42,574 bases of DNA, taken from IMG/VR virus record IMGVR_UViG_3300013372_001340, positions 1-42,574 of that record; one strand, 5' to 3'. The notes under the pieces were generated by a model. The model saw only the letters and a list, made by a program, of their open reading frames with translations. It was not told the DNA's origin and did no database searches. Made by a program: the position numbers and the translations under genes. Origin of the DNA: a virus. How positions within the stretch are numbered: position 1 is the stretch's first letter; every line of letters starts with the position of its first letter. Below, piece by piece: positions 3,437 to 42,574 of the stretch.

Positions 3437-5883
3437 TCGATCCATTCGACTTCCAACAATTCTACATGTGATGGATTCGACAAATGTAATGCATCTTTAA
3501 CGTTTTCTTCTATTAATGCTCTAACATTATCATCTACAATATTAGACCCTGATATTTTTATTTTATAAAATGGACTTTTAGAGCCGGGAAGTTTATGTTT
3601 GAAAAACCTTTCAATTCTTTCAATATATTGTAAATCCGATGTTGGAACATCCCAAATTATATCATCCGACAGTAACACTTCCCTCACAAACAACATCTGA
3701 AAACTTTCAGCCAAAGCATAATCATACAATCTTACATTATTTATGTATCCATTAAATGTAAGATTGTTACTTGCGATTTCAGCATTCATGTTTTCTATTT
3801 TACCATTTGGTGTTCCTATATATAGGTCATTATTAACAGTTTTTATGTCGTAATTTCTAGGGATAACCCTTTCACCTAGTTTATAAGAATCTACATAAAG
3901 TTTCATTACGTTATTTTCGATAGTAGCAACAATAAGATGCCAATCTTTATCATGAACTTCATAAAACGGAGCGGAAATTTTATGATTTATCACCTCACCA
4001 TATCTCGAAAACGTTTCTTTATAATCCGTTAAAGTATTTAATTTTGTTGCAGATACTTTAAAATGTATTTGAGGTTTATTGTCATATTTCACCTTATTGA
4101 AAACTCTTTTCCATTCATATCCTGTAAAATCGCCCGAAAACGCAAAAGACAAATTCAGATTTTTAATTTGATCTGGAAATTCTAAAGAGTTTATAGACGT
4201 ATTCAGATTTACAACCTTTAATATATCTCCATCTAACGACAGTTTATATAAATTTTTATCTTTATACCCTGAATGTATCAATACCGCAACCCATTTATCA
4301 CTGTTAGTTTTTCTATCATATTCACAAAGAAAACTCAAGTTTTTACTTACAATATTTTCTAAATTTGCCACCCCTATATCAAAGGTTGATATTATTTCTC
4401 TGGTTATCGTATTTATTTTTATTATGTTCGTAAATCCGTTTAAAACCCATAGAACGTTTTCAGGGTCTACGACAATTGACTGAACAGATGAAATACCAGC
4501 AAATAAAGTATTTTCATCTCCATAATATAAATAACCATCAGTCCCAACCAACCATTTATTATTTGTGAAATCATATTTAATGTCTTTACACACCTCAGAA
4601 ACCATAACACCATTTAAGTTGAAGCATGTCTTTAAATTATTAGTATATATCAATCCAGTATCATAATTCAATAAATAGAGATTTTGATCCAATGTATAAG
4701 TCCCATAATCTGTTAAAACTATTACATTATCACCAGAAAGAGTTAATATTTTAGGTGTTGCCGTCAATCCATAATAAAACATCACATCACCCAAATGATT
4801 ATACTTTGTAACAGATTTTGAAATATCAGCGGAATCTATCATGAAGATTTCAAAATCTCCATTTATAGCTACCTGTGTTGGGTTACTGTTAATAAGTGGC
4901 GATATTTGTGTCCCACGATCATTATATACGTTAAATTCCGAATTGAATCCTATAATATGACCAAAATAAATTTCAGGGACAACGAAAAACGGATAATGTT
5001 TGAGATTATCGTAAAATATACCATATCCACTTTCGTTAGTAAAGTTTCCAATCAATTGTGACGAACTAGCTTTGTCCCAATTATTATGTTTCACGTTTAA
5101 ACTGATAGTGAATTCTTTCTTCAAATCTTTAACCGCATCAGATTTCACAGAAACTTTTAAATTTCCAGTATTATCAAGATTTAATGCTCCGTTAATAGGA
5201 TTGTAAACATCATACACGTATTTCTCATTGAAGTTATTAAATGCAATAGAGTTATTAAAAAAAGATGTGTCTTTTGGATAACCTGCCCATTGTTTAATCT
5301 CCAATTTCAGTCTGTTGTAATCATTTCCAGCAAAAGTTTTCACTATCTCTTTTGCTGTTTTCTCCCCAATATGATAATATGAATATAAAACACCAGCTTC
5401 TAAAGTCAAAGAAGAAGGAACATCAATAAAAAGATTTTCACTGTCTATGTAATCGGTGAAAAGTGCTTCACCTCTTAACGCTTCTTCATATAATATTCTT
5501 CCGGGATTGTAATACCTGTCCAACCATATAGGCTCATCTTCATTATTTGGGGCATACAACCAACTACATAATAAAGTGCCGTCCACAAGCCCTGTAGAGT
5601 TACCAAATGGGGTGTTTGTTCCATATCCTCCATTGTTTTTACACATTCTATCGGCCATTATAGGTATTGGCCCTGATGTAGCACCACTATATATCAAATT
5701 GGTGTCATTTAAAGCAACCGTATCAGAAAAATATGGATAGTGGAAATGTGTCAAACTGTCTTTTTTAAACTTGACTTCTGTTGTTCCAGATTCATACCCC
5801 AAATGGATTTTATCAGAACCATCAATTTGATTATGTCCTGTAAATATTTTATAATAATCTCGATGTTTCAAATTTTCTATCAT
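3433..5883 (-). CDS. LamG plus beta-propeller tail/adhesin protein
   Basis: 816 aa. Residues ~605-730 match the C-terminal half of a LamG/concanavalin-like jelly roll: DKDWHLIVATIENNVMKLYV, then LYIGTPNG, then FNGYINNVRLYDYALAE. The N-terminal half of the same fold (EFTISLNVKHNNW, GYGIFYDN) seems to lie at ~258-315. Between them, residues ~340-590 look like propeller blades (SIVVDPENVLWVLNGFTNII). The last ~60 residues are a separate mixed domain. LamG domains commonly bind glycans, so a tail-fibre or adhesin role is likely but inferred. Start and upstream stop overlap as ATGA (5880-5883), implying translational coupling. Confidence 0.75.
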   Translation of the reverse strand: MIENLKHRDYYKIFTGHNQIDGSDKIHLGYESGTTEVKFKKDSLTHFHYPYFSDTVALNDTNLIYSGATSGPIPIMADRMCKNNGGYGTNTPFGNSTGLVDGTLLCSWLYAPNNEDEPIWLDRYYNPGRILYEEALRGEALFTDYIDSENLFIDVPSSLTLEAGVLYSYYHIGEKTAKEIVKTFAGNDYNRLKLEIKQWAGYPKDTSFFNNSIAFNNFNEKYVYDVYNPINGALNLDNTGNLKVSVKSDAVKDLKKEFTISLNVKHNNWDKASSSQLIGNFTNESGYGIFYDNLKHYPFFVVPEIYFGHIIGFNSEFNVYNDRGTQISPLINSNPTQVAINGDFEIFMIDSADISKSVTKYNHLGDVMFYYGLTATPKILTLSGDNVIVLTDYGTYTLDQNLYLLNYDTGLIYTNNLKTCFNLNGVMVSEVCKDIKYDFTNNKWLVGTDGYLYYGDENTLFAGISSVQSIVVDPENVLWVLNGFTNIIKINTITREIISTFDIGVANLENIVSKNLSFLCEYDRKTNSDKWVAVLIHSGYKDKNLYKLSLDGDILKVVNLNTSINSLEFPDQIKNLNLSFAFSGDFTGYEWKRVFNKVKYDNKPQIHFKVSATKLNTLTDYKETFSRYGEVINHKISAPFYEVHDKDWHLIVATIENNVMKLYVDSYKLGERVIPRNYDIKTVNNDLYIGTPNGKIENMNAEIASNNLTFNGYINNVRLYDYALAESFQMLFVREVLLSDDIIWDVPTSDLQYIERIERFFKHKLPGSKSPFYKIKISGSNIVDDNVRALIEENVKDALHLSNPSHVELLEVEWID

Positions 5884-19247: not shown

Positions 19248-22200
19248 ATGACAAAACAAACAACGTTCGAAGATGACTTCTCCAAAGAAGTTTGGGAAAC
19301 AACATATAAAGATCACAATGACAATAATGTAGATGATACATTCAGGAGAGTAGCTAAAGCTGTTGCTTCAGTTGAAAAAAACTCTCAACTTAGAGAAGAA
19401 TGGGAGGAGAAATTCTATGACATGTTATCAGAATTCAAAATAACCACTGGAGGACGAATATATTCCAATGCTGGAACAGAATTTACAGGGACTACACTCG
19501 CTAATTGCTTCGTTGGAACAAAACCGAAACAAGATCAAGATTCTCTGGATGGGATTTTAGAAGTTCTTAGAGCACAAGCTAAAACATTGAAAAGTGAAGG
19601 TGGTTGGGGGATGAATTTTTCCTTTATTCGTCCTCGTGGTGCATTCATTCATGGAATTGGAGTAGAAACGCCGGGAGCAGTCAAATACATGGAGTTATTC
19701 GACAAGTCTTCTGATATTATAACTGCTGGTTCAGGCTCAAAGTCTAAAAACAAGAAAGCTAAAGGGAAAATACGTAAAGGTGCAATGATGGGAGTCCTCT
19801 CAGTTTGGCATCCAGATATTGTAGAATTCATTGAAGCCAAATTAACAGATGGAAGATTAACTAAGTTCAACATTTCAGTAAATTGCACTAACGATTTCAT
19901 GGATAAAGTGATTCAGGCGAAAAAACTGAAGATTGAATCCGAAGAAAATCCAGAGAAAGTTAAAGAGTTTGAAGAATCTAATATATGGGAATTGATTTTC
20001 CCTGAAACCACACACGAAAAATATAAAAAGGAATGGGATGGAAATATTGCAACATGGAAAAATAAAGGATATCCAGTAAACGTATATAGAACTATTGGAG
20101 TATTAGAATTGTGGGATAAAATAATAAAATCTACTTACACCAGAAACGATCCGGGAGTTTTATTCTGTGATATTGGGAACAAAACACATTGTTGGAACTA
20201 CGGAAAAAATAGCGACATTCAGGCAACGAACCCTTGTTTTCATGGAGATACTATGGTCGCTGTAGCTGATGGTAGAAATGCTGTCACCATTAAACAACTA
20301 GCAGAAGAGGGCAAAGACGTTCCAGTTTACACAGTAAGTCCAATTACTGGAATGGTAGAGATAAAATGGGGGAGAAATCCTCGTGTGACAGGATATGATA
20401 AAGAATTGCTGGAGATTAAATTCTCTGACGGAACAGATGTAAAAGTTACACCAGATCACAGATTCTTATTGATGAATGGAGATACTAAAGAAGCAAAAGA
20501 TTTGATATTCGGTGATTCTATTCCAAGCTTCACGAAAAGGGCTGAACCTATAGTGAAAAATAAGAATAAATTATACTATAGGGTTCATTGTGATACTAAT
20601 AACCATAATAAGAATAAAGTATTTGAGCACCGTTTAATAAGTAAATTCCACCAGCCCGAAAAATGGGATTCAATATATAATGAAGGAAAAAAAGACGGTT
20701 GGATTAAAGGAGGTTTAGTAATTCATCACAAAGATTACAATGGATTAAATAACTCAATCGAAAATCTCGAAATTATGAGATTTAAAGATCATAACAAATT
20801 TCACGCAGAACATGACTTTAAAGGTGAAAATAATCCAATGTTCGGGAAAAAACATTCTGAGGAAACTAAAAATAAAATAGGAGCAGAAACAAAAAAAAGA
20901 AATGAAAATTCAGAATATAGGAGCACTTGGATAAACAAGATAAATGAATCCTTCACGGATGAACGAAAATCGAAAATATCTACACATAGAACCATATTCG
21001 AATTGAATAGAAGAATGGATTTAGCCGCAAAAACAGGACTTAAAGCTTTTCTAATAGATGGAGAATTAATGGTGGAAAAAACATGCGAATTTACAAACAC
21101 TAAATTCGTAGTTCCTTGGAATAGAAGAGAGGTGTGCTTAAATCCTTCAATTAATCCTATGGAGATAGAAGAATTGAAAGATAAATGCAAACAGAACTTG
21201 AAAAATGCCTTCACCGAAAAAGCTAAAATAAATCTACACAATCAAATAATGATATATAAAGATTTACAAGAAAAACTAGAAAGAACTCCATCGAAGAAAG
21301 AATGGGAAAATGAGTGCAAGTTGAAAAAAGTGAGTTTCAGATTTAATTCTTCTAGTGAGAATCCATATATATTAAAAGGATATAAAGATTTTCAAAACCA
21401 TTCACTCAACTATAATCATAGAATAGTTGGAATTAATAAGGTGAAAGGATTACATACAGTATATAACATAACAACAGAAGATAATCACACTGTTGGAATC
21501 ATAAATAACGTAGAATCAAACACATATAAAGGAATATTTACTTTCCAATGTGGGGAACAACTTCTACCTTTCGGAGGAATCTGCAATTTGGCATCTGTGA
21601 ATCTAACACAATTTATAAACAAGGACAGGACAGATTTCGATCATAAAAAACTTCAAAAGTATCTACCGATATTAACAAGGTTTTCCGATAACGTTAACGA
21701 TTATAGCAATGCTCCACTTGACGAATATATTGATTCTATGAGGAACAGAAGGCGTATAGGTCTAGGAGTTTCTGGTTGGGGTTCTGCATTATATTTACTC
21801 AAAACTAGATTCGCAAGTGAAGAAGCAGAAACCATTAAAGCGAGAATGATGAAAACCTTTACACATACTGTAGTAAAAACTTCAATCGAACTAGCAAAAG
21901 AAAAAGGAATGTTCAAAGAATGTGATCCCGCTAAACATGCATCGGCAAGTTTTTGGAAACAGATCAATTTACCACAAGATTTAATTGACGATATTGAGAA
22001 ATATGGTATTAGAAACTCTGCATTATTTTCAATTCAGCCTACTGGAAATACATCAATTTTAGCAAACATAATATCTGGTGGATTGGAACCACTATTTTTA
22101 AGTGAATATATCAGAACCGTAATAGTTCCATCGTGTCCAGAAGACTTTAAAGAATTCGTTCCTAAATATTGGGAAGGAGAGTTTAAGGAAAATCAATATT

Positions 22201-23120
22201 TCAAACTCCACAAAGAAGGAAACGATGACATATTAAAATATAAACATACTGATGGGATACTATATAAAATAGATAAAAATAGAGGTCTTACTAAAGAAGT
22301 TTTATGTGAAGATTATGCGGTTAGACATCTCAAAAAAACGGATGAATGGAATCCTGATGCAGATTGGGCAGTAACCACAATGAGTTTATCAGTGGATGAA
22401 CATGTAGCAGATATGTCTGGTTGGGGTAAATGGATTGATAGTAGTATGTCCAAAACTGTAAATGTTCCAAACGATTATCCGTTCGACAAATTCGAGAATT
22501 TATATCTAGATACATATAAGACAGGATATTTAAAAGGTATTACAACATACAGAGCAGGAACGATGACTAATGTTTTAGCTGCTAAAACGATAGAAAGTTC
22601 TGAAACTGGATGCAAAGTGTGTAAGAGAGAAAAAGACCTAATTGGAGATATATATCATACTAATGCCAAAGGTGTATCATATTTTGTAATAGTCGGTTTA
22701 GATAAAAACGGATTACCATATGAGATATTTGCAGGTAAAAACGGATTCTTCCCTAAAAGCATAGAAACTGGAACAATACACAAAGTCAAAAGAGGATTAT
22801 ATCAATTACTAGGAGAGAATGATAATGTTGTCATAGAATCTATAACTGAACATCTAGAAGAAGAGGAAGAGGCATTAACTCGCATGATAAGCATGAGTTT
22901 ACGTCATGGTGTTGATATAAATTATGTGGTTCACCAACTAGAAAAGGTTAAGGGTGCTCTAAACAGTTTATCTAAATGTATGTCCAGATGTTTGAAAAAA
23001 TATATTAAAAACGGAACTGCTGTTTCTGGAGAGGAATGTCCTTCTTGCGGAAAAGAGACTTTAATTAGAGCAGAAGGATGCAAAAAATGCATGAACTGTT
23101 CTAATAGTATATGCGGGTAA
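19248..23120 (+). CDS. nrdJ: Class II (B12-dependent) ribonucleotide reductase with intein
   Basis: 1290 aa: 852 aa of extein and a 438-aa intein (residues 330-767). The enzyme reduces ribonucleotides to deoxyribonucleotides for phage DNA synthesis. Seen: TLANCF (C87, redox Cys), KSEGGWGMNFSFIRPRG, GAMMGVLSVWHPDI, NP|CGE (radical Cys C768 after splicing), GGICNLASVNL (C779, partner of C87), IGLGVSGWGS and QPTGNTSIL. The C-terminal region (ALTRMISMSLRHGV) matches the TSCPD domain of NrdJ and ends with a CPSCG...CKKCMNC zinc/redox tail, which favours class II over class I. No ATP-cone is visible at the N-terminus. It has its own sigma70-like promoter and a strong terminator. Activity should require splicing, since the intein separates NP from the radical Cys. 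Confidence 0.9.
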   Translation: MTKQTTFEDDFSKEVWETTYKDHNDNNVDDTFRRVAKAVASVEKNSQLREEWEEKFYDMLSEFKITTGGRIYSNAGTEFTGTTLANCFVGTKPKQDQDSLDGILEVLRAQAKTLKSEGGWGMNFSFIRPRGAFIHGIGVETPGAVKYMELFDKSSDIITAGSGSKSKNKKAKGKIRKGAMMGVLSVWHPDIVEFIEAKLTDGRLTKFNISVNCTNDFMDKVIQAKKLKIESEENPEKVKEFEESNIWELIFPETTHEKYKKEWDGNIATWKNKGYPVNVYRTIGVLELWDKIIKSTYTRNDPGVLFCDIGNKTHCWNYGKNSDIQATNPCFHGDTMVAVADGRNAVTIKQLAEEGKDVPVYTVSPITGMVEIKWGRNPRVTGYDKELLEIKFSDGTDVKVTPDHRFLLMNGDTKEAKDLIFGDSIPSFTKRAEPIVKNKNKLYYRVHCDTNNHNKNKVFEHRLISKFHQPEKWDSIYNEGKKDGWIKGGLVIHHKDYNGLNNSIENLEIMRFKDHNKFHAEHDFKGENNPMFGKKHSEETKNKIGAETKKRNENSEYRSTWINKINESFTDERKSKISTHRTIFELNRRMDLAAKTGLKAFLIDGELMVEKTCEFTNTKFVVPWNRREVCLNPSINPMEIEELKDKCKQNLKNAFTEKAKINLHNQIMIYKDLQEKLERTPSKKEWENECKLKKVSFRFNSSSENPYILKGYKDFQNHSLNYNHRIVGINKVKGLHTVYNITTEDNHTVGIINNVESNTYKGIFTFQCGEQLLPFGGICNLASVNLTQFINKDRTDFDHKKLQKYLPILTRFSDNVNDYSNAPLDEYIDSMRNRRRIGLGVSGWGSALYLLKTRFASEEAETIKARMMKTFTHTVVKTSIELAKEKGMFKECDPAKHASASFWKQINLPQDLIDDIEKYGIRNSALFSIQPTGNTSILANIISGGLEPLFLSEYIRTVIVPSCPEDFKEFVPKYWEGEFKENQYFKLHKEGNDDILKYKHTDGILYKIDKNRGLTKEVLCEDYAVRHLKKTDEWNPDADWAVTTMSLSVDEHVADMSGWGKWIDSSMSKTVNVPNDYPFDKFENLYLDTYKTGYLKGITTYRAGTMTNVLAAKTIESSETGCKVCKREKDLIGDIYHTNAKGVSYFVIVGLDKNGLPYEIFAGKNGFFPKSIETGTIHKVKRGLYQLLGENDNVVIESITEHLEEEEEALTRMISMSLRHGVDINYVVHQLEKVKGALNSLSKCMSRCLKKYIKNGTAVSGEECPSCGKETLIRAEGCKKCMNCSNSICG
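20235..21548 (+). other. Intein in NrdJ with HNH endonuclease (RIR1-type site)
   Basis: 438 residues (330-767 of the ORF). Block A: C330 FHGDTMV. Block B: VTPDHRFLL. Homing endonuclease: IHHKDYNGLNNSIENLEIM with H493/H494, N506 and H515/H519 as HNH residues, followed by a NUMOD3-like motif NNPMFGKKHSEETKNKI (about 528-544). Block F: TVYNITTEDNHTVGI. The C-terminus is GIFTFQ followed by Cys+1 (C768), so the usual His-Asn end is replaced by Phe-Gln. A terminal Gln is known from the Chilo iridescent virus RIR1 intein. The boundaries follow from restoring the NPCGE motif. Confidence 0.88.
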
Positions 23121-30011: not shown

Positions 30012-32678
30012 TTATGATTGATATATTGATGATAGGAATTCGCTTCTTATTCCCTGTATAGCATTACTTATTGATTGTAATGCCTGTGCATCATTTTTTT
30101 GTTGTGGTTGTTGAGTCATAGTAGGATATACATTCACTCCTTGTTTGGAAGAATTTTCCCCTATTATACCCATTATCTTAAACATTGCTTCCGCTAGTTT
30201 AACTATTGATTTATTTGTATCTCCTGTATTGCTTTCTATGTCCCCCAATAGTTTAGAACCATCTAAAGTGGGAGACGGTTTAGATTCTTGTGTAAATGGT
30301 GCTGCAACAACTCCATCCGTTTTATCGAGTTGGAATATTTTCCCACTAGTTTGTGACGATACTATTAATCCGCCTTTAGGATCGATCATAGCATCACCAT
30401 GATGAGTGACTTCAGGAGATTTAATACCTGCTTTTACTCTTTCCGCTATTGACTTTTCTTGTTCACTTGCAAATGCTTTTTTCTCTTCGTCGGATTGTTC
30501 TGGTCGTTGATTGTCATTATCTAATGCTGATATTATAGAATCTGGTAATATCCTTCTAGCAAGCCATTGAAGATTGGTGTCTTTCCACCAAGCTCTAGCC
30601 TTTTCCAGTATCATATCTTTCAATTTCGCAAAAATTCCTTTTGGTTTTGGTGGAAGTGCTTGTCCGCTCTCTTGTTCATTGTCGTCCGAAAAGAACGATA
30701 TGATATTTCTCAATATAGGAACAGACATTCCCATTGTTTTCAGCCCCTTTAAAACATCTCCATCGTATATTTGACCTATTCCTTTTAGTAGTCCACCCAA
30801 AATAGGAACTTTCATAATTTTTTCCTTAATCCATTTACCTAGAGATGCAAACATTCCGCCGATACTTGTTATTCCTCCTGCAACGCCTTTAGCAACACCT
30901 CCAACTTCTTCATCCCCTAATAAAGCACCTAGAAGCTCAAAAGGTGGGAATATATAAGCCATCTGCTTCAAACCCTTTAAAAAGTTTCCTTGTGAGAATT
31001 CTCCAACTGCTTTCAATGCTGGCCCTATTATAGGAAGCTGTAAAACTAATTTCCCAATCTTTTCAGAGGCCCACGCACCTAGAGATTTAATTAGTCCCCA
31101 AACGCTTCCAAGAGCACCTTGAACCCCTTTAGTAGCAGGAACGTCTTCATCCCCTAATAAAGCACCTACAAGCTCAAAAATTGGGACTATATAAGCCATC
31201 TGCTTCAAACCCTTTAAAAAGTTTCCTTGTGAGAACTCTCCAATTGATCTAATTAATGGCCCAATAACTGGCAATGCGACTATCACATCACCAAACTTTT
31301 CACTTGCCCATTCACCTAGAGATTTAATCATGCCCCAAACGCTTCCAAGAGCACCTTGAACAGCAGGAGTAGCAGGAACGTCTTCATCGCCCAATAAAGC
31401 ACCTAGAAGCTCTAATGGTGGTAATATATAGGCCATCTGCTTCAACCCCTTTAAAAAGTTTCCTTGCGAGAATTCTCCAATCGACCTTGTTAATGGCCCT
31501 ATTACTGGCAATTGGACTATCACATCACCAAACTTTTTGCCCATCCATTTTCCAGCATCCTTAATCCAGCCCCAAATCATGGAGCCTTTGCCTTTCCCTC
31601 CTGCATCTGGTGTTCCTCCAGCTTTATAATCCAAAAACGCATTTAATGCATCTATCCCTAGAGATATCCCAAGTCCAATCAAATTCCCTCCTCCAAGCAA
31701 ATTTACCGCACCGGAAAGCAAGTCCAACACTCCACCCAACATATCACCCTTCATGAATCTAGATATTGCAAACCCTATACTGATAATCGTTCCCACAAAC
31801 GGAATAAACTTTGCAACCTTGGCAAATGCTTTTGCTATCCATCCACCCATTTTAGCGAATATTCCCTTTCCTGCACCCTTTCCAATTATTTCTACACCCT
31901 CCTTAGCTGCATCTTTTCCAGCAATGCCAAAGAAACTAGAAATACCTCTCAACATTCCACCAGCAAATTTTTCCAATCCATTAATAGCCATAGCCCCCAC
32001 TTTATGAAGCAGTGATAATCCACCTTGAACACCAAATCTGCTTACAAGTTTTAGCAAACCTTTGAATGGCCCATCGGTTTTTAACCCCTCATATAACGCA
32101 AATAAACCTCCTGCCAATAAAGCCAATCCTCCGAACATCATTTTAAATACCGTAGAACCCTTTTTAGGTTCTTCGTCTTTTTCCTTTTCCGTTTTATCTT
32201 TTCTTTTTGTTACGCTTTCCCCTATTATTTTATGCAACACCTTTTGAGCATTTGGAGATAACCCATCAATTATAGTTAATGCTGGTTTATTTTCTTCCTC
32301 TAGAGTTTTTTTCTCCCCGTCTTTAGTCTTATTAGACGCAAAAAATTGTCCGACATATGACAATAACTCCTTGTTATCTGGTTCTTTCTTATCTACAACT
32401 TTTTCTTTCTTATCTTCTTTTTTGCCTTTATCTTTAGATGTTAATCCTATATCCTCTAAAAGAGTTTTTAACATTCCTTTAGCTGTGGAATCTTTGGATA
32501 AACCCTTAATACCATCTGCCAATGTTTCAGATTTATCTTTAGAACCAGTAGATGCTTTTATAGCTAATATCTTCTTCCCTATGGAATTAGACAAATTTTG
32601 CATGAAACTATCAGCCAACCCTTCAAAAAATGAAGGAGGTAGATATTTTGACACATCAAGTGGAACAGAATCAGCCAT
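30012..32678 (-). CDS. Tape measure protein with tandem repeats
   Basis: 888 aa, the longest protein of the tail core. The N-terminal ~175 residues are charged and Lys/Glu-rich. A long hydrophobic, Gly/Ala-rich stretch begins at ~178 (MMFGGLALLAGGLFALYEGL) with several possible membrane-active segments up to ~355. Residues 365-603 hold three repeats of 79-80 aa (RSIGEFSQGNFLKGLKQMAY in each), then a degenerate fourth to ~670. The C-terminus has HHGDAMIDPKGGLIVSS and a coiled helix. Tape measure proteins set tail length and are ejected early in infection. It sits between the gp26-like genes and the gp48/54-like gene, as expected. Confidence 0.8.
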   Translation of the reverse strand: MADSVPLDVSKYLPPSFFEGLADSFMQNLSNSIGKKILAIKASTGSKDKSETLADGIKGLSKDSTAKGMLKTLLEDIGLTSKDKGKKEDKKEKVVDKKEPDNKELLSYVGQFFASNKTKDGEKKTLEEENKPALTIIDGLSPNAQKVLHKIIGESVTKRKDKTEKEKDEEPKKGSTVFKMMFGGLALLAGGLFALYEGLKTDGPFKGLLKLVSRFGVQGGLSLLHKVGAMAINGLEKFAGGMLRGISSFFGIAGKDAAKEGVEIIGKGAGKGIFAKMGGWIAKAFAKVAKFIPFVGTIISIGFAISRFMKGDMLGGVLDLLSGAVNLLGGGNLIGLGISLGIDALNAFLDYKAGGTPDAGGKGKGSMIWGWIKDAGKWMGKKFGDVIVQLPVIGPLTRSIGEFSQGNFLKGLKQMAYILPPLELLGALLGDEDVPATPAVQGALGSVWGMIKSLGEWASEKFGDVIVALPVIGPLIRSIGEFSQGNFLKGLKQMAYIVPIFELVGALLGDEDVPATKGVQGALGSVWGLIKSLGAWASEKIGKLVLQLPIIGPALKAVGEFSQGNFLKGLKQMAYIFPPFELLGALLGDEEVGGVAKGVAGGITSIGGMFASLGKWIKEKIMKVPILGGLLKGIGQIYDGDVLKGLKTMGMSVPILRNIISFFSDDNEQESGQALPPKPKGIFAKLKDMILEKARAWWKDTNLQWLARRILPDSIISALDNDNQRPEQSDEEKKAFASEQEKSIAERVKAGIKSPEVTHHGDAMIDPKGGLIVSSQTSGKIFQLDKTDGVVAAPFTQESKPSPTLDGSKLLGDIESNTGDTNKSIVKLAEAMFKIMGIIGENSSKQGVNVYPTMTQQPQQKNDAQALQSISNAIQGIRSEFLSSIYQS
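30873..31586 (-). repeat. Three tandem 237-240-bp repeats in the tape measure gene
   Basis: Units at 31586-31347 (80 codons), 31346-31110 (79 codons) and 31109 to ~30873. Matching DNA (AAGCCATCTGCTTCAA-type stretch) recurs at exact 237-base spacing, ending at 30960, 31197 and 31434. Identity is highest over GEFSQGNFLKGLKQMAY. A diverged fourth unit follows to about 30670. Confidence 0.85.
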
Positions 32679-38745: not shown

Positions 38746-41013
38746 TTATGGGCGGAATATAGTATATCCTAAATCTGTTAAATCCTCCATGTTAAGATCG
38801 TCTTCTCCGTATATGTCCAAATTACCGAGTAAAGGTTCATACTTCTTTTGAACTTTTTCGTTGGATGGTATTACCACATTTCCACCTATTAAATCTTTCA
38901 ATTCATATAAACTCTCATCATTAGGGAAATATTCACCTCTAGTTATCTTCAAAGGCTTCTGTTGCTCGTCTGTCTCTTCTATGTTAAAATATTGCTGACA
39001 AACATCAGGGTCTAATGTAAACAATCCCCAAACTAATCCCATGACATAATCATCAAAAAATTTTTCGCCTTTTTTCCGATATGTTCCATTTGGATATCTA
39101 ATAAAAGTCTCTAATTCAGATATTGTTTGAGAATCGTATATTTTAACCACTTGTAAGAAATTGATCCAATATCTCAAATTGCTAACAGCATTAAACCTAA
39201 GATTGTTATGGCTAAAAATACCCAAATTTTTGGTGGATTTATATTCTCCAGTCTGAGTCAATTTACTATAACTTACCAATTTCTCGTAACTCAGTTCATG
39301 TGATAGTGCATCCAGCGTTTGAGCACCACAGTTATTTCTTTCAATCAACAATGGAGGATTACCCCAAGAAGAACAAAGGTTTATTAATCGATTTGCGAAA
39401 TGATATGGTTCTATCGTGTTTGAACCATAAACAGCAACTTGAGTTATATTAGATAAGTCTGTCACATCCAAAACCTGCGCTGTAGATGAAGCCCTCCCTA
39501 CGCCTTCGCCAACATCGCAACCCACAACATATAAATTATCCTTCTTAGGCATTTCATAAACTCTGTAAGAACCATCATCAGACTTCCATATAGGTGCTTT
39601 TTTATTAACCTTAAAAGCCTCTAAAACATCATAACCTACTGCGGCTGTTGCGGAATCCAAAAATACATTACCAAACTCTTGAGAAAAAGACTCTTCCGAT
39701 CCTAAAGTGTTAACCATGTCATTCTTCCACTTCTCGTTTCTTCCCGGAACATCCCACCAATCAATTCTTTCATTGTTCCACCCATTATCTCCCTTTTCAG
39801 CACCATTATACATCTCATAGAACTTGTTTCCTATTCCATTAGGTGTGCTAACCATGAAGATTTTCGATTTTTTACCAGATGATATAGTAGGAATAACAGA
39901 CTTCCAGAAATCATCTAAAAGGTGTGTATTATGATTTAAAATACCATTAGCATAATATCTGTGATTCTTTTCAACATCTACTATATCATATACATAATCC
40001 TCATCATCAATTTCTTCAACACTAATAACTTTATCTATTCCATTTTCTGTTATAATGTTCGAACCTAAAGAATTTACAGCGTGTATAATATCCCCCGATT
40101 CTAATATAAATCCATGTTTTTCAGAAACTATTATGTTTTTGCCGCACCCTAAAAGCACTTTCACCAATTTCTTTTTATCGTATTTCGAAACACCTTTAAA
40201 ATCTGACCATCCACAATCCGTCCACACTTCCAAATTTTCATTTGTTTCATAACATATTAAATCGTTTTCAATACCTGAAACATTAGTATTGAACTTAAAC
40301 ATTTCTCCGATCTTTTTCTCATATTCTTTTTTAGTAAATACATCTCTCAATTTCACAACAGATTCCCCATGTAAACATTCTATATGTGCAGCCTCATCTA
40401 TAAACAAACAATTTATTGACTGGCCACGAGCCGCTGTGGATGATGTAGTGCTAACTTTGATAGAACTTCCATTAGCTAACGCCATTCCTGTTTTTCCCCA
40501 CTCTTTTACTCCGGGTTTTAGGTAATTCGGAAGTAATTCATATGCTAGTCTTATTCTACTAAAAATTGATATTGCTGTGTCTTCTTTGTTCGCAACTATC
40601 AACATGCTTTGATCTGAAGAGAAACAGCAAATCCATAATGCGAAAATAGTAGCCAATGTGGAATTATGACTTAATATTCCATTCGTATAAAAAGTATGAT
40701 TTTCTGAATCTATAGACAAATCATACATATTCTCAGGAGGACAGTCTAATTTAACCACACTATTCACCTTCTCAATTCCATTTTCAGTTATTATACCATC
40801 ACCAACTTTTAAGTCTTTGACATATATCTCAATACCATCCTCTCCAATCACTATATGTTCATCAGCACACTCTAAAAAGAAATTTGAGGTTTCTATCCTC
40901 CAAACATCAAATGGCACTGTTTTATGCACTTCTTGAATGTCCACCCACCCTTCATCTGTCCATACTTCATAATCTTCAACTTTTTTAGAGTCTATAAACT
41001 TTTCTGCTTCCAT
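38746..41013 (-). CDS. terL: Large terminase C-terminal half, with split-intein C-fragment and a mini-intein
   Basis: 755 aa. Residues 1-117 are the C-terminal fragment of a split intein ending GILSHN. Residues 118-212 are extein, from the Ser of Walker A (STLATIFALW) to Walker B (CLFIDEAAHIE, D206/E207). Residues 213-362 are a second intein. Residues 363-755 are extein: SGKKSKIFMVSTPNG (coupling motif), then the RNase H-like nuclease with D500 (GCDVGEG), E558 (LLIERNNCG) and D654/D655 (FDDYVMGLVW). The gp17-type enzyme packages DNA with ATP and cuts concatemers. About 488 extein residues are here; the N-terminal ATPase part is encoded upstream (42428-42574 and beyond). Function needs trans-splicing at Walker A and cis-splicing after Walker B. 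Confidence 0.93.
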   Translation of the reverse strand: MEAEKFIDSKKVEDYEVWTDEGWVDIQEVHKTVPFDVWRIETSNFFLECADEHIVIGEDGIEIYVKDLKVGDGIITENGIEKVNSVVKLDCPPENMYDLSIDSENHTFYTNGILSHNSTLATIFALWICCFSSDQSMLIVANKEDTAISIFSRIRLAYELLPNYLKPGVKEWGKTGMALANGSSIKVSTTSSTAARGQSINCLFIDEAAHIECLHGESVVKLRDVFTKKEYEKKIGEMFKFNTNVSGIENDLICYETNENLEVWTDCGWSDFKGVSKYDKKKLVKVLLGCGKNIIVSEKHGFILESGDIIHAVNSLGSNIITENGIDKVISVEEIDDEDYVYDIVDVEKNHRYYANGILNHNTHLLDDFWKSVIPTISSGKKSKIFMVSTPNGIGNKFYEMYNGAEKGDNGWNNERIDWWDVPGRNEKWKNDMVNTLGSEESFSQEFGNVFLDSATAAVGYDVLEAFKVNKKAPIWKSDDGSYRVYEMPKKDNLYVVGCDVGEGVGRASSTAQVLDVTDLSNITQVAVYGSNTIEPYHFANRLINLCSSWGNPPLLIERNNCGAQTLDALSHELSYEKLVSYSKLTQTGEYKSTKNLGIFSHNNLRFNAVSNLRYWINFLQVVKIYDSQTISELETFIRYPNGTYRKKGEKFFDDYVMGLVWGLFTLDPDVCQQYFNIEETDEQQKPLKITRGEYFPNDESLYELKDLIGGNVVIPSNEKVQKKYEPLLGNLDIYGEDDLNMEDLTDLGYTIFRP
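39928..40377 (-). other. Contiguous mini-intein in TerL after Walker B
   Basis: 150 residues (213-362). Begins C213 LHGESVVKL (block A) and ends NGILNHN (block G), with Thr363 as +1 residue. Block B-like IIVSEKHGFI; block F YVYDIVDVEKNHRYYANGI. No endonuclease domain. Removing it joins IDEAAHIE to THLLDDFWKSVIP, which matches uninterrupted gp17-type terminases. Confidence 0.88.
40663..41013 (-). other. C-terminal fragment of atypically split TerL intein
   Basis: 117 residues starting at ATG 41013. It holds block B (LECADEHIVIG), block F (MYDLSIDSENHTFYTNGI) and block G (LSHN), with Ser118 as +1. The split lies before block B, so most of the intein is in the C-fragment, as in the AceL-TerL intein (about 25 + 104 residues). 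It closely resembles the downstream mini-intein. Confidence 0.88.
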
Positions 41014-41024
41014 ATAGGTATAAC

Positions 41025-42290
41025 TTATCCATTCCTTATGAAATTAATGCAGTCTTCTAAAACTTTCTGCTTGTTTTTATAGTAATATAATTCTTTAACT
41101 ACTAAAACATCAAAATCAGGTAAAGATTTTTTAATTTCGTTTAAACGGTTAATATCTTTATCCACTGTATAATCCACTTGTTTATTTGCAACACTATGCC
41201 AATATGCGCCATCGAATTCTATGCCTCTATTCACATCTTTAACATAAAAATCTAAAAACCTATAAGATTTTTCCGTCTCTATTTTATATTCATAATTTTT
41301 TCCGCTGTCGTCTCTCTCCCCATTCATTTTAGTGGCAAAGAATATTTCAGAATAGTCGTTTTTAATATTTTCGTATATATCCCAAAAAAGCTTTTGAGAT
41401 ACTAAAGAATATTTCAATCTAGGAAAAGATTTCAGCCATTTTTCTGTCATGTTTTTCCTTTTTATGATTGCCTCATCAATACTGCATTTCTCACGATTGA
41501 TTATACTATCCACAGAAGTCATGTTTTGATGTGAACTGACTAAAAGTTTAGATTGTTCTTCCGTATTTCCCTTTCGCATCCAGTATTCTTTTTTAGATGG
41601 CGTGTTTCCTTCTCTAAGGAGGGTTTCACTTATTTTATCACCGCAGCAATGTCTATTATCAATTTTATTATAATAGTTTACGTTGCAATTTGTGTTGTGA
41701 CAAAAATTGTCATATCCTTGAATTATCCCTTTGAATTTCATGTCTTTACCGCACCATAAACACATTCCGTCCTTTTCTCCGCTTTTAACATGTTTGTTGT
41801 AATATAATATAGGATCATGTTCACTGTTAACGTGCTTAGATAAATGTAATGTGTTGCCATATACGTTACCACATTCTAAACATTCGTGTTTATAATCTTC
41901 TTCCGTTAAAACACCTCCACGTATTTTACAGGATTGATTATAATGTAATACATTACATGCTCCCCTTTTGACCATATCAAAAGGAACATTATTACAACAA
42001 GAGGGTAAACAACATTTCGATTTTCGTTCAAAATATTTTCGGTAAATTTCCCTCTTATATTCAATATCCCCTACTTTATATATAGCTGCACTAACTGCCT
42101 TCCATGTATCAAAATACGAATTCAACTCTTCAACAAATGTGTATTTTTTCAATTCCTCTAGTGACTGATTAACATTTTTATTATTTTTCTTGTATACGCT
42201 TTTAACCAAAGACCCTGCAAACCTCCCATACGTTTTATGTTGATGTTCAGTAATACAAATTCCAGTAACTTTACAGTATAGATTTTTCAT
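41025..42290 (-). CDS. Vsr-like (EDxHD) homing endonuclease between the terL halves
   Basis: 421 aa. Residues ~90-205 hold zinc-finger-like clusters: CCLPSCC, C137-x2-C140 with H153/H158, C177-x2-C180 with C197 and C202, likely DNA-binding. The C-terminal ~85 residues are a Vsr-like nuclease: FLDFYVKDVNRGIEFDGAYW followed by His, with E358, D360 and H365. This matches the endonuclease family found inside fractured split-intein genes (I-Bth0305I-type, EDxHD). It probably cuts terL alleles lacking the intein at the Walker A site, spreading the whole unit. It begins 41 bases after the TerL-N stop and ends 11 bases before the TerL-C start. All three read in one direction. Confidence 0.85.
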   Translation of the reverse strand: MKNLYCKVTGICITEHQHKTYGRFAGSLVKSVYKKNNKNVNQSLEELKKYTFVEELNSYFDTWKAVSAAIYKVGDIEYKREIYRKYFERKSKCCLPSCCNNVPFDMVKRGACNVLHYNQSCKIRGGVLTEEDYKHECLECGNVYGNTLHLSKHVNSEHDPILYYNKHVKSGEKDGMCLWCGKDMKFKGIIQGYDNFCHNTNCNVNYYNKIDNRHCCGDKISETLLREGNTPSKKEYWMRKGNTEEQSKLLVSSHQNMTSVDSIINREKCSIDEAIIKRKNMTEKWLKSFPRLKYSLVSQKLFWDIYENIKNDYSEIFFATKMNGERDDSGKNYEYKIETEKSYRFLDFYVKDVNRGIEFDGAYWHSVANKQVDYTVDKDINRLNEIKKSLPDFDVLVVKELYYYKNKQKVLEDCINFIRNG

Positions 42291-42331
42291 ATAACTATAC
42301 TTATCAAACTTTAAGGAATTGTCTAACCTGT

Positions 42332-42574
42332 CTAAGATTTAATCGAACTATAAAACTCTCCGACAGTGATATTTTTAGATTCCAGTGTTTTTTTATTCCT
42401 GATTCGAACAATTGTATCATCTTTAAGTCATTTGCCTGCTTGTCTAGAACCCAATAAAACGACGAACCTATTGTTCTGCAAGCTCTTTAAAACCCTTTTT
42501 TGGGCTGGATAAAGTTCGATGGTTTCTTTACCTCTATCTAGATTTACAATCGTGAAATGATTTTCTGCGAAGTG
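42332..42574 (-). CDS. terL: Large terminase N-terminal half end plus split-intein N-fragment (in-frame TGA at intein residue 1)
   Basis: The frame is open from the window edge. The 48 visible residues include HFAENHFTIVNLDRG, ELYPAQKRVLKSLQNNRFVV and LLGSRQAGK, the gp17-type adenine-binding region and Walker A up to GK. The next codon, 42430-42428, is TGA. The frame then continues for 31 codons as an intein N-fragment (LKDDTIVRIRNKKTLE ... ITVGEFYSS) to TAG at 42334-42332. The missing Ser of GK[ST] is the +1 residue of the C-half. As read, translation would stop at TGA exactly at the intein Cys1 position. It may be mutation, sequencing error or recoding. The start lies beyond the window. Confidence 0.8.
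42335..42430 (-). other. N-terminal fragment of the split TerL intein
   Basis: 32 codons counting TGA as residue 1. DDTIV matches the block A GDTxV pattern, and KNITVGEFY matches the following block N2-like strand. Length is comparable with the 25-residue N-fragment of AceL-TerL. The first codon should encode Cys (or Ser) but reads TGA, one base away from TGT/TGC. Confidence 0.8.

What the first reader, a model, noticed from the sequence alone, without database searches (positions are those of the whole stretch)
42428..42430. In-frame TGA exactly at the catalytic Cys1 of the split TerL intein
Seen: SRQAGK is followed by TGA and then, in frame, by a well-kept intein N-fragment (LKDDTIV...) ending at TAG. 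The nucleophile codon should be TGT/TGC, one base away. The C-fragment keeps block B His and the HN|S junction, so the intein is not decayed. Options: sequencing error, a fresh inactivating mutation that leaves terminase in two unspliced parts, or recoding. TGA read as Cys or selenocysteine would give a splicing-competent residue; Trp would not. Wholesale TGA reassignment is not supported, since all other genes stay open with TGA as stop.
Basis: partly seen in the sequence, partly recalled or inferred. Interest (0 to 1): 0.82.

Follow-up and report, generated by a model that had tools for sequence, protein, structure and literature searches.

The report
Lone stop codon in split intein
A phage packaging gene split by a self-joining intein shows a stop codon where the reactive cysteine should be, but the nearest relative and every other copy with the same split intein have cysteine there, so this is most likely an error at the contig end or a one-off loss mutation, not a new way of reading the genetic code.

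Summary
The TGA is in the sequence exactly as described (minus strand, codon 42430-42428). It sits at position 1 of a naturally split intein in the P-loop of a T4-type terminase large subunit (TerL): N-extein ...SRQAGK | IntN of 32 aa | 421-aa free-standing gene | IntC of 117 aa | Ser+1. The recoding reading fails. A sibling IMG/VR contig (3300017784_003688) matches window 40897-42574 at all but two bases: this codon, where it has TGC (Cys), and 42451, a Ser-to-Gly change 23 bases away. All seven related contigs with this split intein at this site carry TGC or TGT. Both private changes lie in the last 147 bases of a linear contig, and both alter the protein. No tRNA, no Rfam RNA, no SECIS-like fold and no other in-frame TGA (13,869 codons) was found. 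The simplest account is a contig-end error or chimera; next is a fresh null mutation in a rare or defective genome. The intein is a new member of the atypically split TerL inteins (best PDB match VidaL) in a fractured-gene arrangement. More interesting than the TGA: its N-intein plus nuclease cassette is exchanged between nearly identical TerL C-halves.

The parts
42431..42574 (-). TerL N-extein fragment ending ...LLGSRQAGK (P-loop up to the Lys); 5' part cut off by the contig end
   Evidence: intact 140-aa N-part in sibling L006 5134-5556; PHROG terminase large subunit E=5.6e-19 for the sibling's N-extein
42428..42430 (-). TGA at intein position 1 (Cys1); TGC in sibling 3300017784_003688, TGT in L002/L004/L005/L008/L009/L029
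42451..42451 (-). second window-private base: rc G here, A in all four contigs that share this stretch (Gly instead of Ser)
42335..42427 (-). remaining 31 residues of the N-intein (LKDDTIV...SSIKS); TAG at 42334-42332
   Evidence: identical in L006
41025..42290 (-). free-standing 421-aa gene between the intein halves, probably the homing endonuclease (Cys/His-rich N part, EFDGAYWH motif near the C end)
   Evidence: identical in L006, 51-53% in L002/L008; no Pfam, PHROG, NCBIfam or convincing PDB match, so 'endonuclease' is inferred from position and motif
40663..41013 (-). intein C-fragment, 117 aa, ending SHN; Ser+1 at 40662-40660
   Evidence: composite intein matches VidaL (PDB 6vgv) E=1.3e-6, CatC (6dsl) E=0.0053; TIGR01443 intein C-terminal splicing region
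40378..40662 (-). TerL C-extein, ATPase part (Ser+1 to Walker B ...FIDEAAHIE)
   Evidence: Pfam Terminase_6N
39928..40377 (-). second, contiguous 150-aa mini-intein in TerL (C1 ... NHN|T), absent in L005 and L007
38749..39927 (-). rest of the TerL C-extein (end of ATPase and nuclease domain)

Best explanation
The locus is an ordinary fractured TerL gene: N-extein plus short N-intein, a free-standing endonuclease-like gene, then C-intein plus C-extein, whose protein halves splice in trans through Cys1 and Ser+1 to rebuild the P-loop GK|S. The window's TGA is a private single-base change of a TGC codon, found in this contig only. It is most likely a sequence or assembly error in the last 150 bases of the contig (about 60%), otherwise a recent null mutation in a rare or defective genome (about 35%). 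It is not read as Cys or Sec. Shown: codon, anatomy, siblings, absence of recoding signals in the sequence held. Inferred: splicing itself, and error rather than mutation.
For: Sibling 3300017784_003688 is identical to window 40897-42574 (1,678 bases, including the whole 421-aa gene and N-intein) except at 42428 (TGC) and 42451. All seven other contigs with this split intein at this site have TGC or TGT. A degenerate-codon scan of IMG/VR finds this N-intein only in that sibling, and the private 42451 base in none of four contigs. The two changes lie 23 bases apart within 147 bases of the contig end and both change the protein, whereas the 19 coding differences from the nearest 30-kb relative are 14 synonymous, 5 missense and 0 nonsense. 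That relative's own contig start holds 3 differences in its first 21 bases and then 1 in the next 11 kb, so contig ends are the unreliable part. The window is also mosaic: like 3300012012_000690 downstream of 41076, like 3300017784 upstream of 40897, joined in a 180-base stretch identical in both. No recoding signal: fold z=0.27 after the TGA, no tRNA, no Rfam hit.
Against: No reads were available, so error is inferred. Clustered private substitutions also occur inside the contig (39067/39078, both synonymous), so two close changes at the end are not proof of error. Only one sibling carries exactly this N-intein.
Confidence: 0.9

Rival explanations
1. Genuine recent null mutation. The TGA ends the N-half after ...SRQAGK, no splicing follows, and the P-loop (GK in one half, S in the other) is never rebuilt. 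The genome would persist only by co-infection with intact siblings, or as a dying lineage.
For: C-to-A is a single base change; the population around it is highly recombining and intact copies exist.
Against: Terminal position and a second private coding change within 23 bases; no other nonsense change over 30 kb against the nearest relative.
Confidence: 0.35
2. Recoding: TGA read as selenocysteine or cysteine at this one site, giving a splicing-competent nucleophile.
For: A TGA aligned with Cys in homologues is the usual first sign of a selenoprotein (general knowledge), and the frame continues into an intact intein.
Against: The 61 nt from the TGA fold no better than shuffles (z=0.27, -3.3 kcal/mol). 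No tRNA gene in the window or sibling contigs. The downstream sequence is identical in the TGC sibling, so nothing has evolved around the TGA. No second TGA/Cys case in 13,869 codons. No conservation of the TGA.
Confidence: 0.02
3. Stop readthrough (UGA followed by C, a leaky context from general knowledge) by a near-cognate tRNA gives a little full-length N-half. Trp would not splice; rare Cys would.
For: The context is TGA C; readthrough of in-frame stops in prokaryotic genes has been argued from conservation (abstract of PMC7918605).
Against: No conservation of the stop; a lone variant needs no such account. UGA readthrough in bacteria mainly gives Trp (general knowledge).
Confidence: 0.03

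Closest known systems
Atypically split TerL inteins (AceL-TerL, GOS-TerL, Cat, VidaL)
   Same: Short IntN (32 aa here; AceL 25, GOS 37, VidaL 16), large IntC (117 aa), Cys1 in all relatives with this split intein; composite intein matches VidaL 6vgv and CatC 6dsl (PMC11766414, PMC13014065)
   Different: Ser+1 here, Cys+1 in AceL and GOS; position 1 reads TGA in this one contig
Fractured-gene arrangement with split intein and free-standing homing endonuclease (Dassa et al. 2009, PMC2677866, cited in PMC11766414; AceL NrdHF in PMC7891396)
   Same: N-half gene, endonuclease-like gene, C-half gene in one direction
   Different: The 421-aa gene has no family match with the libraries used, so its endonuclease family was not established
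Campylobacter phage CP21 TerL (HE815464)
   Same: Sequenced named phage whose TerL is broken the same way: 35-aa IntN starting with Cys (CLENTRVQVRNKYTNKIETLTIKELYARLQELKKS), an intervening ORF, then a GTG-started IntC plus C-extein
   Different: Another insertion point in TerL; a different intervening gene (GIY-YIG-like by eye, not tested)

Membership tests
Atypically split TerL intein | Intein in TerL, encoded as two separate genes with a short (about 16-37 aa) IntN | tested here: met
   32-aa IntN, separate 117-aa IntC at the start of the next TerL gene
Atypically split TerL intein | Sequence relation to characterised members | tested here: met
   Composite intein (sibling IntN plus window IntC) matches VidaL E=1.3e-6 and CatC E=0.0053
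Atypically split TerL intein | Cys or Ser nucleophile at position 1 | tested here: not met
   TGA in the window; met in all seven other contigs with this split intein, TGC or TGT. The locus is related by descent, with position 1 broken or misread in this contig
Atypically split TerL intein | C-terminal HN followed by Cys/Ser/Thr+1, and trans-splicing activity | tested here: inconclusive
   SHN|S present, TIGR01443 hit; splicing not testable here
Fractured gene with homing endonuclease | Endonuclease gene between the two halves | tested here: inconclusive
   A 421-aa ORF with Cys/His motifs and EFDGAYWH lies there; no family hit and no convincing PDB hit; AlphaFold model too poor to use (pLDDT 41.5)
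Selenoprotein / recoded TGA | SECIS element just downstream of the TGA | tested here: not met
Selenoprotein / recoded TGA | TGA kept in relatives, or a tRNA-Sec / suppressor tRNA encoded | tested here: not met
   Cys codons in all relatives with this split intein; no tRNA in the window or sibling contigs. Host genome unknown, so host tRNA-Sec not testable
TGA-reassigned genetic code | TGA as sense codon across genes | tested here: not met
   0 in-frame TGA in 13,869 codons; one gene ends in TGA, overlapping the next start as ATGA, with another stop right after it

The most novel reading that the evidence does not exclude
A split-intein phage terminase in which position 1 is specified by a recoded TGA (Sec or Cys), so that packaging depends on recoding or readthrough in the host.
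Probability: 0.02. Interest if true: 0.9.

Novelty: new member of a known kind. Interest (0 to 1): 0.17.

Why it matters
As a recoding claim it does not hold, and knowing this prevents a false selenoprotein or suppressor report from one metagenomic contig. What remains of use is a set of natural split TerL inteins in which two IntN fragments (11 of 32 residues identical) occur with nearly the same IntC. That is a natural counterpart to the fragment interchange reported between GOS-TerL and AceL-TerL, and material for split-intein engineering.

Tried and rejected
Wholesale TGA reassignment: rejected from stop and codon usage. SECIS: rejected. Phage-borne suppressor or Sec tRNA: none found. Rfam elements: none. 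A second intact N-half in the same contig: none. Prokaryotic genomes for a host lead: no relative found. Structure of the 421-aa gene: AlphaFold with 4 sequences failed (pLDDT 41.5), so no fold search was made. Papers holding split intein, AceL-TerL and terminase together: none held; reviews found by other terms were used. A selenocysteine intein in a phage: the search returned nine papers, none of which looked relevant from title or abstract.

Full report
Observation. On the minus strand the window ends inside a TerL gene. Translation gives ...FVVLLGSRQAGK*LKDDTIVRIRNKKTLESKNITVGEFYSSI..., with the TGA at 42430-42428 and the frame closing at TAG 42334-42332. A 421-aa gene follows (42290-41025), then a 755-aa gene (41013-38746) that starts with a 117-aa intein C-fragment ending SHN|S, and carries a second, contiguous 150-aa intein at 40377-39928.

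What the locus is. The spliced product would rebuild the P-loop SRQAGK|S of a T4-type terminase (PHROG and Pfam terminase matches). The composite intein (sibling N-fragment plus window C-fragment) finds VidaL (PDB 6vgv, E=1.3e-6) and the consensus atypical intein CatC (6dsl, E=0.0053). Its geometry fits the atypically split TerL inteins: AceL-TerL has a 25-aa and GOS-TerL a 37-aa N-fragment (PMC11766414), VidaL 16 aa (PMC13014065). A free-standing gene between the halves is the fractured-gene arrangement, as described for AceL NrdHF (PMC7891396). Campylobacter phage CP21 shows the same design in its TerL, with a Cys-starting 35-aa N-fragment. Splicing itself was not tested.

Is the TGA a feature of the lineage? 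No. IMG/VR contig 3300017784_003688 (L006/L017/L018/L046) carries the same N-fragment and the same 421-aa gene. Over window 40897-42574 it differs at only two bases: 42428, giving TGC (Cys), and 42451, giving Ser instead of Gly. Contigs 3300012012_000690, 3300032223_001693 and 3300005582_001950 have TGT with a different N-fragment; 3300028854_000025, 3300029982_000194 and 3300029908_000371 have TGT with a third. A degenerate-codon scan of IMG/VR (TGN at this codon) found this N-fragment only in the TGC sibling. The scan allowing A or G at 42451 found four contigs, all with A. The collection may leave out the window's own record. Contig L013 has an unbroken intein starting with Ala at the same site, so position 1 is not Cys in every intein inserted here, but no relative has a stop.

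Error or mutation? Both private bases are 124-147 bases from the end of a linear contig and both change the protein. In the 32,017 window bases covered by at least one of six relatives, 12 private bases were counted, only one of them (42451) in the last 147 bases; the TGA base is a thirteenth, missed by that count because relatives carry two different Cys codons. On a simple Poisson model, two such bases in the last 147 has probability about 0.001, but private substitutions elsewhere are clustered, so this overstates the case. The 19 coding differences from the nearest relative over 30 kb are 14 synonymous, 5 missense, 0 nonsense. That relative's contig shows 3 differences in its own first 21 bases and then 1 in the next 11 kb, which suggests that contig ends in this material are the less reliable part. 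The last 123 bases of the window are the same in the four close sibling contigs that reach there, and contig 3300005582_001950 begins six bases beyond the window's end, consistent with the contig stopping where strain variants branch (inference). The window also joins a 3300012012-like genome (downstream of 41076) to a 3300017784-like cassette (upstream of 40897) through 180 bases identical in both. That is either natural recombination or an assembly chimera. I put error or chimera at 0.6 and a real null mutation at 0.35.

Recoding. The 61 nt starting at the TGA fold at -3.3 kcal/mol, no better than shuffles (z=0.27). No tRNA is found in the window or sibling contigs and no Rfam family matches. 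TGA never occurs in frame in 13,869 codons while TGG occurs 198 times. The single TGA gene end at 5880 overlaps the next ATG. The sequence after the TGA is the same as in the TGC sibling, so nothing around it has adapted to recoding. Sec machinery in the unknown host cannot be checked.

If the TGA were real. The P-loop Lys is in one half and the Ser in the other, so an unspliced TerL cannot have an intact P-loop. The genome would depend on intact siblings. A 232-aa TerL ATPase-like paralogue with an intact P-loop lies just upstream of TerL in three sibling contigs; whether it could help is unknown, and the window does not reach it.

Side result. Contig 3300012012_000690 and the window have identical 755-aa TerL C-halves (100%) but different N-inteins (11 of 32 residues identical) and intervening proteins 51% identical. 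Independent of the window, the IntC variant shared by 3300032223, 3300005582 and 3300017784 occurs with both N-intein types. So the N-intein plus endonuclease-like gene appears to move as a cassette, which implies that one IntC tolerates both N-fragments; GOS-TerL and AceL-TerL fragments are reported to interchange (PMC11766414). This deserves more attention than the TGA.

Noticed in passing
window 41076-42437 against L002, L004, L005, L006: N-intein plus 421-aa gene exchanged as a cassette between nearly identical TerL C-halves: N-inteins 11/32 identical, intervening proteins 51% identical, C-halves up to 100% identical. Two N-extein bases (42437, 42434; synonymous) travel with the cassette.
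   Followed up: partly
L006 4419-5117; L002 2538-3236; L004 from 2098: A 232-aa TerL ATPase-domain paralogue (39% identical to TerL, intact P-loop RQCGKTT, no intein, no nuclease domain) directly upstream of the fractured TerL; function unknown.
   Followed up: partly
window 39928-40377; L005, L007, L004: A second TerL intein just after Walker B (HIE|C...NHN|T) is present or absent among close siblings (empty site in L005 and L007); L004 has a further mini-intein just before Walker B (SIN|CLDGDS...HN|CLFIDE).
   Followed up: partly
L013 1661 onward: A contiguous intein beginning with Ala at the same GK| insertion site, possibly class 2 or 3.
   Followed up: no
window 19248-23120 (+): Ribonucleotide reductase large subunit whose PHROG matches are broken by a stretch matching HNH endonuclease families (residues about 437-548), probably another intein.
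   Followed up: no
window 30903-31658, in gene 30012-32678: Internal repeats in a large protein; copies cross-align and the sibling contig 3300012012 has an N gap here.
   Followed up: no
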